The position numbers were made by a program, and so were the translations under genes. The notes beneath the pieces are model-generated. The model was not told the DNA's origin. It saw nothing but the letters and a program-made list of their open reading frames with translations, and did no database searches. 64,000 nt of DNA from Veillonella rogosae JCM 15642 (GTDB lineage Bacteria > Bacillota > Negativicutes > Veillonellales > Veillonellaceae), in the NCBI RefSeq assembly GCF_002959775.1, contig NZ_PPCX01000010.1, positions 1 through 64,000 of the forward strand. The letters run 5' to 3'. Below, piece by piece: positions 11,190-44,246 of the stretch. Position 1 is the first letter of the stretch, and each line of letters begins with the position of its first letter.

Positions 11190-11625
11190 AGCACTATTTA
11201 TATGAAAACTATCAAAAGAGTAGTATATTGATGGGACGCCTTCTTATCTACAGTTATAAAAAGGAAAGACTATACTTATGCAGCGATCTCCCCTCAACAC
11301 ACTAGTTTTATAAAAGCTATCGTAGGGAATAGTATATTGATGGGACTTATGTTCCGCAAACGTTTTACTAATGGGCACCACCTATTGAGGGCCGAAACGC
11401 GTCTATCTCCCAGCACATACTATTTTGGGAAAATCTATCAGAGAAGTAGTATATTGATGGGACACCTCCATATCTACAGTTATAAAAAGGAAGGACTATA
11501 CTTATGCAGCGACATCAGGTCACGAGGAGCAAAGAAGTATAGTCCTTCCTTTTTAACTAGGTTGTAGATACGAAACTGGGCCCCATCAATATACAGCCAC
11601 TAACAGATAGCTTTTACAAAATAGT
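11190..11625. repeat. Four copies of a ~48 bp intergenic repeat
   Basis: Three direct copies (about 11190-11237, 11298-11346, 11412-11463) and one inverted copy (about 11578-11625) share ACTATTTT..AAA.CTATC..TAGTATATTGATGGGAC, varying in the middle. A second repeat (TATCTACAGTTATAAAAAGG and on to CTTATGCAGCGA) occurs at 11246-11286 and 11471-11512. The 680-base gap between sdaAB and hcp contains no convincing coding sequence; an open frame at 11337-11567 runs through these repeats and lacks coding character. It looks like decayed or clustered small mobile repeats, but the family is not known to me. Confidence 0.8.
11471..11570. other. Long imperfect hairpin in the repeat region
   Basis: A perfect 20-bp stem (11484-11503 with 11535-11554; arm core GGAAGGACTATACTT) encloses a 31-base loop. 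An outer 8-bp helix, TATCTACA/TGTAGATA (11471-11478, 11563-11570), closes it. On the plus strand the stem ends in five T, on the minus strand also, so it could terminate transcription in both directions, or be the core of a miniature element. Confidence 0.7.
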
Positions 11626-11730: not shown

Positions 11731-13296
11731 TTAGCCCAAGATAGCTTTCAAGTCAGCTTCTGGAGTTGTAATTGGATGCAATTGGAATTTCTCTACCAAA
11801 ATGTTCAATACATTATTGGAGAAGAATTTAGGCAAGGATGGGCCGATGTAGATGTTGCGGATACCCAATGCCAACAATGTTAACAAGATACATACCGCTT
11901 TTTGTTCGTACCAGGACAATACCAATGTTAATGGCAAGTCGTTTACGTCACATTCAAAGGCACCAGCCAAAGCTACTGCTACTTGAATAGCGGAGTAAGC
12001 ATCGTTACATTGACCCATATCAAGGATACGAGGGATACCACCGATTTCACCGATGTTAAGGTCGTTGAAACGGAATTTACCACAAGCCAATGTCAATACT
12101 ACTGTATCTTCTGGAGTTTGTTTTACGAAGTCTGTGTAGTAGTTACGGCCTACTTTAGCACCGTCACAACCACCTACTAAGAAGAAGTGTTTGATTGCGC
12201 CAGCTTTTACAGCGTCGATTACTGTATCAGCAATGCCCAATACTGTGCCATGACCGAAACCAGTAGTTACTTCATGACCACCGTTAATACCAGTGAATTC
12301 TTGAGCTTCTTTGTAGCCGCCCAATTCGATAGCACGGTTGATAACTGCGGAGAAGTCTTTTGTACCATCTGCATTTTCTTCGATGTGTGCACAACCGTCG
12401 AAACCTACCATATCTGTAGTGAAGATATTTTCTCTGTAGTTTTCTTTTGGTGGCATAATGCAGTTTGTAGTGAACAAGAATGCGCCAGGAACGTCAACGA
12501 ATTCTTTTTGTTGGTTTTGCCATGCAGTACCGAAGTTACCTTTTAATTGAGGATGTTTTTTCAATTCAGGGTAAGAGTGGCAAGGCAACATTTCACCATG
12601 AGTATAGATATTTACACCTTTACCATCAGTTTGGATCAACAATTGTTTCAAGTCGTGAAGGTCATGACCAGTTACAACGATGAAAGGACCTGGTTCTACA
12701 GTCAAAGGTACTGTAGTTGGTACTGGTGTACCGTAAGATTCTGTATTAGCTTTATCAAGAACAGCCATACATTTCAAGTTAACTTCGCCGAATTCCATCA
12801 AAAGACCAAGCCATTCTTCAGCGCTGTGATCTTTCGCCATTTCTACTAGACCTTTAACGAACCAAGCGTCAACGTCAGCATCGTGGAAACCAAGGCGAGC
12901 AGCATGCCATGCGTATGCAGCCATACCACGCATACCTAACAATAATGTGGAACGAAGGGATACGATATCTTCTTCACCTTTCCACAATTGTTCCCAATCA
13001 AAGTTTTGTTGAGTGCTGTCCACTTGTGCATGGTAAGCGTTTACTTCGTCGATGAACGCTTGAACGCGGTCTTCAGAGAAGTTAACGTTTGTTACACACA
13101 TGAATAAACCACGCATTAAATAATCGATACCTTCTTTAGTGTGGCCTTTTACGTCTAAAGCGCGAGCCAAGCCAACCAAAGCAGCAGTTAATTCGTCTTG
13201 TAAGTTTGCAACTGGTGCAGTTTTACCACATACACCTTGTACTGTACAACCAGCTGGTGCTGCAGATTGTTCGCATTGATAACAGAACATGCTCAT
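11731..13296 (-). CDS. hcp: Hydroxylamine reductase / hybrid cluster protein
   Basis: 521 residues from the ATG ending at 13296 (AGGAGG seven bases upstream). Hcp holds a [4Fe-4S] cluster and the unusual [4Fe-2O-2S] hybrid cluster, and acts on nitric oxide or hydroxylamine under nitrosative stress. The N-terminal cysteines follow CX2CX8CX5C (C5, C8, C17, C23), the spacing of the anaerobe class. Hybrid-cluster ligands are visible in GINGGHEVTTGFGHG, FLVGGCDGAKVGRNYY, TLACGKFRFN and GQCNDAYSA. Slightly shorter than the usual ~540-550 residues. A Crp/Fnr-family gene is divergently transcribed, and a palindrome lies near the hcp promoter, so NO-responsive control is likely. Confidence 0.96.
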   Translation of the reverse strand: MSMFCYQCEQSAAPAGCTVQGVCGKTAPVANLQDELTAALVGLARALDVKGHTKEGIDYLMRGLFMCVTNVNFSEDRVQAFIDEVNAYHAQVDSTQQNFDWEQLWKGEEDIVSLRSTLLLGMRGMAAYAWHAARLGFHDADVDAWFVKGLVEMAKDHSAEEWLGLLMEFGEVNLKCMAVLDKANTESYGTPVPTTVPLTVEPGPFIVVTGHDLHDLKQLLIQTDGKGVNIYTHGEMLPCHSYPELKKHPQLKGNFGTAWQNQQKEFVDVPGAFLFTTNCIMPPKENYRENIFTTDMVGFDGCAHIEENADGTKDFSAVINRAIELGGYKEAQEFTGINGGHEVTTGFGHGTVLGIADTVIDAVKAGAIKHFFLVGGCDGAKVGRNYYTDFVKQTPEDTVVLTLACGKFRFNDLNIGEIGGIPRILDMGQCNDAYSAIQVAVALAGAFECDVNDLPLTLVLSWYEQKAVCILLTLLALGIRNIYIGPSLPKFFSNNVLNILVEKFQLHPITTPEADLKAILG

Positions 13297-42986: not shown

Positions 42987-43075
42987 TAAAAAAAGCATGG
43001 CAAAACTACCATGCTATAAATGCTTATGAATTTCCGTAGTTTTGTTTAGAGACAGGATGGTTTCAAACTGTCTTA
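42987..43075 (-). promoter_or_regulatory. preQ1 riboswitch (class I-like) with terminator, queT leader
   Basis: On the minus-strand RNA, a 6-bp helix AGACAG/CTGTCT (43073-43068, 43055-43050) encloses a 12-base loop. It is followed by the A-rich tail CTAAACAAAACTACGG, much like the Thermoanaerobacter preQ1-I aptamer tail. Downstream is an intrinsic terminator, AGCATGG/CCATGCT (43015-42994) with seven T. The terminator loop TAGTTTTG is exactly complementary to the aptamer tail CAAAACTA, so tail and terminator exclude each other. preQ1 binding should hold the tail, free the terminator and switch queT off. The aptamer loop is not a textbook match, so the class is tentative. Confidence 0.78.
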
Positions 43076-43090
43076 TTTAGTTGTGCACTT

Positions 43091-43119
43091 ATAATATCAT
43101 ATATTTTCGATGTTTACAA
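43091..43119 (-). promoter_or_regulatory. queT promoter
   Basis: Minus-strand TTGTAA (43114-43119), 17-base spacer, TATTAT (43091-43096), about 15 bases before the riboswitch helix. Confidence 0.65.
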
Positions 43120-43141
43120 GTCATGAGGAGATATAGAGTAC

Positions 43142-43349
43142 TAAAGCGGCCTTTACTAACTCCTGATATCGGTCTAATGTAGGCATAGACGGGGCGGTGG
43201 CAGATACCTTTCCGCATCGCTCCACTGGCTATACGGTCATCGGCCTAGGGCCTCGACCTGCCAAAGTCGCTCTTTGAAAAGGTATCTACCACCACTGCGA
43301 ATTTAGCAAATCAATGTTACGGATATTAGTAATTCTAAAGGCCGCTTTA
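43142..43349 (-). ncRNA. Candidate structured non-coding RNA
   Basis: About 208 bases folding into one long rod. A perfect 14-bp closing helix (43142-43155 with 43336-43349; core AAAGCGGCC) is followed by a helix around GATATC (43163-43173 with 43319-43329), a large internal bubble (about 20 and 24 bases), a ~20-bp helix (43193-43213 with 43276-43296) and a GC-rich apical hairpin (GGTC..GGCC around 43225-43258). Three mismatches of the inner helix are C-A on the plus strand but G-U on the minus strand, so the RNA is probably minus-strand. A TTGATG-N17-TATTTA promoter candidate lies at 43370-43398. It is GC-rich for this genome and has no open frame. The stem-bubble-stem plan recalls 6S RNA, but I cannot name the family. 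Confidence 0.65.
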
Positions 43350-43400
43350 ACTCAGCATCCTCCAAATGATAAATAATATGAAGTATATTACTCATCAAAG

Positions 43401-43430
43401 CGCCTCAACTAGTCTAAGCCAGTTGAGGCG
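43401..43430. other. GC-rich hairpin near the structured RNA
   Basis: The perfect stem CGCCTCAACT/AGTTGAGGCG with a 10-base loop, and no strong T-run. It lies just upstream of the candidate promoter of the structured RNA and could be a weak terminator for queC transcripts. Confidence 0.5.
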
Positions 43431-43493
43431 AGCTAGTGACATATAAGTCCACCTAATCCTCAATATATTATCTTATCTATTAGTTTATATGCA

Positions 43494-43524
43494 AAGTAGC
43501 CGCCTAAACGGCGACTACTAATAT
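43494..43524 (-). terminator. queC terminator
   Basis: The stem AGTAGTCGCC/GGCGGCTACT on the minus strand (43519-43495) has one U-G pair and a 5-base loop, followed by TTTGC. On the plus strand the same pair would be C-A, again pointing to minus-strand RNA. A smaller hairpin, ATCCA/TGGAT (43526-43544), lies closer to the queC stop. Confidence 0.55.
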
Positions 43525-43556
43525 AATCCAGTTTTAGTGGATTTAGAGAAGTTCTA

Positions 43557-44246
43557 TTATTGTGCTGGGTCTTCGACGCCGTTGGCCTCAAAGGCGGCTT
43601 GTCTGTCGATGCAGGTACCGCAGTGTCCGCATGGTTTGTCGCCGCCTTCGTAGCAGGACCAGGTTAGGTGGTATGGTACGCCGAGTCGTAGGCCTTCTTT
43701 TACAATATCCGCTTTATTGGAGTTGATAAATGGTGCTTCTAGAGAGCATTCTTTACCGGATCCTTCAAAGATAGCATCGCCCATGGATTTATAGAAGTGT
43801 TCTGTACAGTCTGGGTATGCGTTACCAGCCGCATCATCGCTATGGGCACCATAGTAGATATAGCCGCAGTCTAGAGATAAGGCTAAGGAAGCCGCCGCAG
43901 ATAGGAATAGGCCATTTCTAAATGGCACATAGGTGCTAACGGTGCCTTCTCCTTCTGTTTCTTGTTGTTCCTTGTATGAACCTTGAGGTATTTCCTCTGT
44001 GGATTGGGTCAATAAAGAGCAATTGCTGAAGGCAAACAATTTAGTGACATTCATCGTTTTACCTTCAATTCCATAATAAGCGAGAATAGATGTAGCAGCC
44101 TCTAATTCTTTACTATGTTTTTGACCATATTGAATGGATAACGGCACTACATTATCTTTGCCAAATCTTTCAATAGCTAACGCTAAACATGTAGTACTAT
44201 CTACCCCACCACTGAATAAGACAACAGCCTTTTGTTTTTGAGCCAT
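43557..44246 (-). CDS. queC: 7-cyano-7-deazaguanine synthase QueC
   Basis: 229 residues from the ATG ending at 44246 (AAAGGAG upstream). Converts 7-carboxy-7-deazaguanine to preQ0 with ammonia and ATP. PP-loop SGGVDSTT at about 11-18; a zinc site near the C-terminus in SCYEGGDKPCGHCGTC. QueD, QueE and QueF are not in the window. With queT downstream, this organism has both synthesis and salvage functions for queuosine precursors. Confidence 0.96.
   Translation of the reverse strand: MAQKQKAVVLFSGGVDSTTCLALAIERFGKDNVVPLSIQYGQKHSKELEAATSILAYYGIEGKTMNVTKLFAFSNCSLLTQSTEEIPQGSYKEQQETEGEGTVSTYVPFRNGLFLSAAASLALSLDCGYIYYGAHSDDAAGNAYPDCTEHFYKSMGDAIFEGSGKECSLEAPFINSNKADIVKEGLRLGVPYHLTWSCYEGGDKPCGHCGTCIDRQAAFEANGVEDPAQ

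What the first reader, a model, noticed from the sequence alone, without database searches (positions are those of the whole stretch)
43142..43349. Unassigned ~208-nt structured RNA next to queuosine genes
A perfect 14-bp closing helix, a second helix, a large central bubble, a ~20-bp helix and an apical hairpin are nested across 208 bases of non-coding, locally GC-rich sequence. Inner-helix mismatches are C-A on plus but G-U on minus (43195-43294, 43201-43288, 43212-43277), which supports a minus-strand RNA; one G-U pair goes the other way. A TTGATG-N17-TATTTA promoter candidate lies upstream, and no terminator follows, so it may continue into the queT leader. The plan resembles 6S RNA, but no known motif was recognised; it could also be a new leader or mobile RNA.
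Basis: partly seen in the sequence, partly recalled or inferred. Interest (0 to 1): 0.75.

Follow-up and report, generated by a model that had tools for sequence, protein, structure and literature searches.

The report
Veillonella-wide family of capped intergenic hairpins
The folded stretch beside the queuosine genes is real, but it is one copy of an apparently undescribed family of long hairpins, with a conserved tip and site-specific stems, scattered between genes in the mouth bacterium Veillonella, mostly just after genes end.

Summary
The 208-nt structure is real (minus-strand MFE -91.2 kcal/mol, z -8.1; perfect 14-bp closing helix). It is neither 6S RNA (the genome has its own elsewhere) nor any Rfam family. 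It probably does not lead into queT: a TTGTAA-N17-TATTAT promoter candidate and a preQ1-like aptamer lie between. It belongs to a dispersed hairpin family found here only in Veillonella. The conserved part is a 50-nt tip (CGACUUU...GGAG, tandem G.A) with covariation, on stems of about 22-23 bp that usually differ from site to site. One model found 93 copies in 10 of 28 family genomes, all in the window's genus (V. atypica 41, V. tobetsuensis 30, own genome 4). Tips are exchangeable: at one leu-operon spacer, species carry different tips. A motif-plus-stem scan found 52 such hairpins in 1.65 Mb of four Veillonella genomes and 0 in 400 kb of another genus; permuted motifs gave 0-1 per genome. 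In 48 of 56 hairpins the nearest called gene edge is on the tip's 3' side, a stop codon in 35. Best reading: a REP-like palindromic element, often a gene-end hairpin. Mobility and transcription are inferred, not shown; the window copy is atypical in form and place.

The parts
43142..43349 (-). Whole long-form element in the queC-queT spacer
   Evidence: fold z -8.12; closing helix kept in 7 of 7 long-form spacers, with two different sequences
43336..43349 (-). 5' side of the 14-bp closing helix
   Evidence: perfect inverted repeat
43142..43155 (-). 3' side of the 14-bp closing helix
   Evidence: perfect inverted repeat
43270..43295 (-). 5' arm of the inner stem
   Evidence: consensus fold of 7 sequences
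43194..43219 (-). 3' arm of the inner stem
   Evidence: consensus fold of 7 sequences
43220..43269 (-). Conserved type I cap module CGAC...GGAG (tandem G.A, covarying helix, GGCC apical hairpin, 5-nt bulge)
   Evidence: model R1 83.9 bits (this copy is one of the 7 the model was built from); covariation on 62 distinct rows
43370..43398 (-). Candidate promoter TTGATG-N17-TATTTA upstream of the element
   Evidence: by eye in 4 of the 7 long-form spacers, segment absent in 3
43495..43519 (-). Terminator-like hairpin after queC, before the element
   Evidence: read directly; function inferred
43091..43119 (-). Candidate queT promoter TTGTAA-N17-TATTAT, downstream of the element
   Evidence: read directly; function inferred
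43030..43076 (-). Divergent preQ1-I riboswitch-like aptamer before queT
   Evidence: 18.1 bits, below the gathering score of 39, E 0.42; sequence pattern conserved in 12 of 14 genus spacers
11483..11555 (+). Second hairpin of the same architecture in the window, with a minimal 20-nt cap CGAC...GGAG, downstream of and antisense to a hydroxylamine reductase gene (11731-13296, minus)
   Evidence: gene named

Best explanation
The element is one copy, in an unusually long nested form, of a Veillonella-specific dispersed palindromic element. Each copy is a stem of about 22-23 bp whose sequence is usually particular to the site, capped by a conserved RNA-like (or single-stranded DNA) module that opens with CGAC and closes with GGAG (tandem G.A pairs) and carries one of several exchangeable apical hairpins. 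Most copies sit shortly after a stop codon, with the cap antisense to that gene, where the hairpin can serve as a transcript-end (partly terminator-like) structure. It spreads, is lost, inverts and tandemly duplicates like a non-autonomous repeat (REP-like behaviour). At queC-queT it sits between a terminator-like hairpin after queC and the queT promoter candidate and is probably a passenger or insulator rather than a queT leader. Shown: structure, covariation, copy number, taxonomic limits within the genomes searched, site positions, different tips at one orthologous spacer, presence/absence between species. Inferred: mobility, a trans-acting recogniser of the cap, termination, any transcription.
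For: R1 matches: 93 in 10 of 28 family genomes, all in the window's genus; 10 of 61 order genomes, 1 of 13 genera, with stricter filters; one cap pattern gave 28 stretches in GTDB genomes, all Veillonella. Cap covariation on 62 distinct rows: 87.6% of cells paired against 73.8% in shuffles and 22-53% when slid; 130 cells with both-side changes against 45.6 in shuffles; pairs with such a change 12 against 9.8, reached by 16 of 500 shuffles. 5' arm of 22-23 nt in 26 of the 45 arms scoring 10 or more, out of 48 non-redundant elements. CGAC/GGAG-capped hairpins: 25 (V. atypica, 400 kb), 16 (V. tobetsuensis, 386 kb), 6 (G000, 464 kb), 5 (G010, 400 kb), 0 (G021, another genus, 400 kb); six permuted motifs together gave 0 or 1 per genome. 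Nearest called gene edge on the cap's 3' side in 48 of 56 hairpins outside ORFs, a stop codon in 35; stop on the 5' side in 5. Leaving out V. tobetsuensis, which shares sites with V. atypica: 35 of 40 (p 1.4e-6), stops 26 against 3. queC-queT spacer: element in 9, none in 3, other neighbours and no element in 2 of 14 genus genomes. leuD-leuB spacer: different caps in different species. Opposite orientation at one site between species.
Against: No clean insertion boundary or target duplication was resolved, and no mobilising enzyme was found: Y1 transposase matches are in 12 of 14 genomes and by eye do not track copy number; no reverse-transcriptase (PF00078) match in the two copy-rich genomes. 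Stem mismatches do not clearly favour a strand: G-T 61, A-C 46, p 0.18. T-tails are only partial: 5 or more T in 9 nt in 24 of 58 on the strand opposite the cap (mean 4.05) and 16 of 58 on the cap strand (mean 3.31), against 3.05 expected from non-ORF base composition. The element asked about is atypical: cap in sense orientation, about 200 nt from the nearest gene edge, and stem too imperfect for the cut-off of 13 (it appears at 11). At least one stem sequence recurs at a non-orthologous V. tobetsuensis element, so stems are not strictly site-specific. No expression data.
Confidence: 0.6

Rival explanations
1. A host-selected class of (often bidirectional) intrinsic terminators whose loop carries a protein-binding cap; not mobile, maintained at gene ends and copied rarely.
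For: Position after stop codons in 35 of 56; T-tails moderately above base composition on the strand opposite the cap; compensatory stem changes at orthologous sites, by eye; stems shared between V. atypica and V. tobetsuensis at orthologous sites.
Against: R1 copy number runs from 41 to 0-4 between congeners; identical or near-identical 52-nt caps at unrelated sites; tandem truncated copies; 34 of 58 lack a T-tail of 5 in 9 on the strand opposite the cap.
Confidence: 0.25
2. A cis-regulatory leader of queT (or 3' regulator of queC) acting on the minus strand.
For: In the 9 genomes that have an element in the queC-queT spacer the cap is sense to both genes; closing helix kept in 7 of 7 long-form spacers with two different sequences.
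Against: A promoter candidate and a preQ1-like aptamer sit between it and queT; 3 of 14 congeners keep queC-preQ1-queT without it; the same cap lies at leu, metH and many other genes.
Confidence: 0.07
3. An independent small RNA transcribed from the TTGATG-N17-TATTTA promoter.
For: Promoter-like sequence in 4 of the 7 long-form spacers; a conserved U.G pair in the cap favours the minus strand.
Against: No terminator follows; promoter segment absent in 3 of the 7; no Rfam match.
Confidence: 0.06
4. Chance fold of GC-rich sequence.
For: None beyond local GC richness.
Against: z -8.12, 0 of 200 shuffles; covariation.
Confidence: 0.01

Closest known systems
REP elements (GTAG and CGTC repetitive extragenic palindromes; PMC3733652, abstract and the section on genome distribution read)
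   Same: Intergenic multi-copy palindromes close to the 3' ends of upstream genes, families limited to few species, plausibly acting as RNA hairpins
   Different: REPs are 20-40 bp palindromes, mostly with a GTAG or CGTC tag; here the tip is conserved, the 22-23 bp stem usually differs between sites, and no invariant tag was seen
MITEs (defining features recalled)
   Same: Short non-coding elements differing in presence between species, with inverted repeats
   Different: No terminal inverted repeat shared by all copies, no target duplication resolved, no parent transposase identified
Intrinsic transcription terminators (defining features recalled)
   Same: Hairpin after stop codons, T-tails in a part
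   Different: Large conserved covarying cap; many lack T-tails; cap orientation biased
6S RNA (RF00013)
   Same: Long irregular hairpin with internal bubble
   Different: No model match here; true 6S is elsewhere in this genome
Veillonella ilvD and potE motifs of the GC-IGR survey (PMC8632094, passages read)
   Same: Structured-RNA candidates limited to Veillonella (potE also in environmental samples)
   Different: Each tied to one gene; the passages read do not describe a dispersed capped hairpin (supplement not available to me)

Membership tests
6S RNA | Match to RF00013 | tested here: not met
   No 6S match at E up to 10 in 42990-43570; own 6S at G000:C3:40795-40967, 86.9 bits
Any Rfam 15 family (raiA and others) | Match at gathering score | tested here: not met
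REP | Multi-copy intergenic palindrome near gene 3' ends | tested here: met
REP | Palindromic sequence shared among copies | tested here: not met
   Only the tip is shared; of 32 V. atypica arms 13 had a match with at most 1 mismatch elsewhere in 0.79 Mb, mostly at the orthologous site; 0 for reversed controls
REP | GTAG or CGTC tag at one end | tested here: inconclusive
   Weak T/A flank signal only, best flank column 0.69 bits over 39 elements
REP | Dedicated RAYT transposase | tested here: inconclusive
   Y1_Tnp domain in 12 of 14 genomes, by eye not tracking copy number; RAYT identity not tested
MITE | Common terminal inverted repeats and target duplication | tested here: inconclusive
   No precise boundary resolved at the spacers compared
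Intrinsic terminator | Hairpin followed by T-tract | tested here: inconclusive
   5 or more T in 9 nt: 24 of 58 opposite the cap, 16 of 58 on the cap strand; none after the window element
Intrinsic terminator | Transcript ends there | not testable with these tools
   No RNA data
Reverse-transcriptase-linked element (retron, DGR, group II intron) | RT gene in genomes rich in copies | tested here: not met
   PF00078 match in 3 of 14 genomes (G001, G003, G010), neither V. atypica nor V. tobetsuensis
CRISPR-like guide array | Arms match foreign or other genomic targets | tested here: not met
   One 20-nt arm of the window had no exact viral-contig match; V. atypica arms matched mainly orthologous sites in 0.79 Mb. 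Other arms were not searched in viral contigs

The most novel reading that the evidence does not exclude
A new kind of minimal mobile or exchangeable element that occupies the tip of long gene-end hairpins: the apical cassette (20-52 nt) is swapped or inserted at the apex of existing hairpins, while the stems are inherited at the site and kept paired by compensatory change, and a genus-specific factor recognises the tandem-G.A cap on the strand antisense to the gene.
Probability: 0.22. Interest if true: 0.78.

Novelty: new variant of a known kind. Interest (0 to 1): 0.52.

Why it matters
Known dispersed palindromes share their stem; here the tip is shared, the stem is usually particular to the site, different tips occupy the same spacer in different species, and orientation to the neighbouring gene is strongly biased. 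That makes a testable system for how hairpin repeats arise, spread and shape gene ends in an oral genus, and it gives a reason not to call similar spacer folds new regulatory RNAs from one genome alone.

Tried and rejected
6S or another Rfam RNA: rejected. queT leader: disfavoured. Spread by a Y1 transposase: by eye uncorrelated with copy number, and R1 finds no cap in the 10 fetched Y1 loci (L103-L112). Reverse transcriptase: no PF00078 match in the copy-rich genomes. CRISPR-like guides: arms matched mainly orthologous sites, one window arm had no viral match. Phage origin: one cap pattern found no viral contig; a looser one gave 12 stretches, in which R1 found 3 matches, the best at E 0.23, that is chance. 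'Always an intrinsic terminator': T-tails of 5 in 9 in less than half on either strand. Strand preference from stem mismatches: 67 G-T to 43 A-C in one count, 61 to 46 (p 0.18) in the broader one: inconclusive.

Early alignments mixed orientations or put the 3' side one base out of register and were dropped; model R1 was built on 7 equal-length caps. R1 misses variants: no R1 match in G003 or G010, yet G003 has a capped hairpin at leuD-leuB and G010 has 5 in 400 kb, so R1 absence is not absence of the family. The covariation alignment was fitted to R1 and leans towards its structure. The consensus fold of 7 long forms does not include the outer closing helix, because its sequence differs between two groups; it was found by folding each genome apart. 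Two orthologous pairs were cut at wrong places (a, i) and redone. A first pairing scan was too permissive and was replaced. Gene contexts rest on a crude longest-ORF caller (at least 70-90 aa); elements inside its ORFs were left out of the distance counts (2 of 58; 11 of 52 rows, where 33 of the other 41 had the nearer edge on the 3' side). Sites shared between V. atypica and V. tobetsuensis are not independent; a recount without V. tobetsuensis is given. The leuD-leuB comparison covers 12 of 14 genus genomes.

Full report
What was checked. The 14-bp closing helix is perfect and the three cited mismatches are U-G on the minus strand. The minus strand folds at -91.2 kcal/mol, z -8.12; the plus strand at -77.7, z -5.39. 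No Rfam family matches at gathering score, and at E up to 10 nothing relevant matches inside it. 6S is excluded: this genome has a clear 6S elsewhere, 86.9 bits. The neighbours are a QueC and a QueT protein.

It is one copy of a family. A DNA search of 14 genus genomes (9 with a match) found the spacer itself in relatives and, unexpectedly, the central 50 nt scattered in two other species with unrelated flanks. A covariance model of that central part (R1) found 93 places in 10 of 28 family genomes, all in the window's genus: 41 in G002, 30 in G013, 4 in the window's own genome. In 61 order genomes, under stricter filters, it matched the same 10, 1 of 13 genera. One cap pattern in GTDB genomes gave 28 stretches, all Veillonella; matching contig lengths identify G002 as V. 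atypica KON, G013 as V. tobetsuensis ATCC BAA-2400, G006 as V. infantium T11011-4 and G011 as Veillonella sp. T11011-6. The species of the window was not determined.

Anatomy. Each copy is a near-perfect stem capped by CGACUUU...GGAG. Next to the stem come two G.A pairs in tandem (read from sequence), then a helix that covaries (GGC/GCC, AGU/GCU, GCU/GGC, ACU/AGU), then a variable apical hairpin and a bulge. On 62 distinct rows 87.6% of cells pair, against 73.8% in shuffles and 22-53% when slid; both-side changes number 130 against 45.6 in shuffles. Two coarser measures are weaker: pairs with a both-side change (12 against 9.8) and further pair types (35 against 30.6) were reached by 16 and 15 of 500 shuffles. 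The alignment was fitted to the model. One U.G pair is nearly invariant (53 U-G, 3 U-A, 1 other), which favours the cap-sense strand as the structured molecule. The 5' arm is 22-23 nt in 26 of the 45 arms scoring 10 or more, out of 48 non-redundant elements. Arms usually differ between sites while caps can be identical over 52 nt. Of 32 V. atypica arms, 13 had a match with at most one mismatch elsewhere in 0.79 Mb, mostly at the orthologous site in V. tobetsuensis; the exceptions are a neighbour about 590 nt away, a different V. tobetsuensis element, and one place not examined. Reversed controls gave none.

Wider class. Searching simply for long stems closing on CGAC...GGAG gave 25 hairpins in 400 kb of V. 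atypica, 16 in 386 kb of V. tobetsuensis, 6 in 464 kb of the window's genome, 5 in 400 kb of G010 and 0 in 400 kb of another genus (G021). Six permuted motifs together gave 0 or 1 per genome. This includes minimal 20-nt caps, one of them in the window at 11483-11555 after a hydroxylamine reductase gene. The queC-queT copy itself, with a less perfect stem, falls below that cut-off (13) and appears at 11. Genomes without R1 matches can still carry the class (G003, G010).

Where they sit. At cut-off 11, 58 hairpins had called genes on both sides. Of the 56 outside called ORFs, the nearest gene edge is on the cap's 3' side in 48: a stop codon in 35, a start in 13; 5 have the stop and 3 a start on the 5' side (binomial p 5e-8 for 48 of 56). 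Since V. atypica and V. tobetsuensis share sites, I recounted without V. tobetsuensis: 35 of 40, p 1.4e-6, with stops 26 against 3. Thus the usual place is shortly after a stop codon with the cap antisense to that gene. T-tails are partial: 24 of 58 opposite the cap and 16 of 58 on the cap strand have 5 or more T in 9 nt; means 4.05 and 3.31 against 3.05 expected.

How they change. At queC-queT, seven genomes carry the long form. The closing helix is kept in 7 of 7 with two different sequences, although the alignment-based consensus fold recovers only the inner 38 pairs. V. atypica has a different stem and a truncated tandem copy there, V. tobetsuensis a different cap type; G003, G004 and G010 have none; G001 and G007 have other neighbours and none. 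At the spacer between leuD-like and leuB genes (named), read in 12 of 14 genomes, one finds type I (G000, G006, V. atypica), type II (G009), both (V. tobetsuensis), a 20-nt mini-cap in arms that by eye resemble those of G009 (G012, G008, G010; 3' arm broken in G004), a type I-like cap with another apical hairpin (G003), or nothing (G005, G011). At a third spacer the G000 copy is inverted relative to those of V. atypica and V. tobetsuensis with similar arms, and by eye is absent from G005, G006, G008, G009, G011 and G012. Arrays of truncated copies (arm plus the start of the cap) precede several full copies, which fits tandem duplication breaking at the hairpin tip (inference).

The queC-queT copy. 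A terminator-like hairpin follows queC, then the element, then TTGTAA-N17-TATTAT, then a preQ1-like aptamer and queT. The element therefore seems to lie between transcription units, and a leader role is unlikely (inference).

Mechanism. Best supported is a REP-like dispersed palindrome. Its place after genes and the partial T-tails suggest gene-end hairpins; differing presence, inversion and different caps at one spacer suggest spread or exchange by an unknown activity. No enzyme was found: Y1 transposase matches in 12 of 14 genomes do not by eye follow copy number, and there is no PF00078 match in the two copy-rich species. Stem mismatches do not choose a strand (61 G-T, 46 A-C, p 0.18).

Known literature. 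REP families are 20-40 bp, mostly with GTAG or CGTC tags, and lie near gene 3' ends (PMC3733652, abstract and distribution section). The GC-IGR survey reports ilvD and potE motifs in Veillonella (PMC8632094, passages); its supplement could not be read. In the top listings of searches combining Veillonella with hairpin, palindromic-repeat, structured-RNA, terminator and transcriptome terms no title or abstract start describes this family; passages of PMC7160235 and PMC8040213 did not either. Papers further down those listings and unheld papers were not seen.

Noticed in passing
window 43076-42990, minus strand: Divergent preQ1-I riboswitch-like leader of queT (18.1 bits, below the Rfam cut-off of 39), with a terminator whose GGTAGTTTTGCC can pair with the aptamer's AAAACTAC (by eye); sequence pattern in 12 of 14 Veillonella spacers, a variant in G007.
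   Followed up: partly
window 11483-11555: 21-bp hairpin with minimal CGAC...GGAG cap downstream of and antisense to a hydroxylamine reductase gene; similar pair at G000:C1:196363 and 196939.
   Followed up: partly
L009 and L012, about 1416-1680: A type I capped hairpin lies between the T-box leader and the leuA start in V. tobetsuensis and V. atypica.
   Followed up: no
V. atypica (G002) contig C11, e.g. 93168-93248, 114032-114111 and about 186500-186850 (L060, L061, L065): Another repeat: about 25-bp palindrome AAATTAGAACAGGCCTGTTCTAATTT and variants in pairs or tandem arrays.
   Followed up: no
L181, L182, L185, L186: A further spacer repeat, GTCCAGGTCGCTCGCTGGGC...CACGCTCCGACCAAAG and variants, at the same spacer in G006, G009, G004 and G010.
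   Followed up: no
G013:C22:116233-116722 and V. atypica C11:57950-58450: Fourth cap type, CGACTTCGGGCTCCGC...GTGTCGG, on the same kind of stem; at this array the complete hairpin has type III in V. atypica and the fourth type in V. tobetsuensis.
   Followed up: partly
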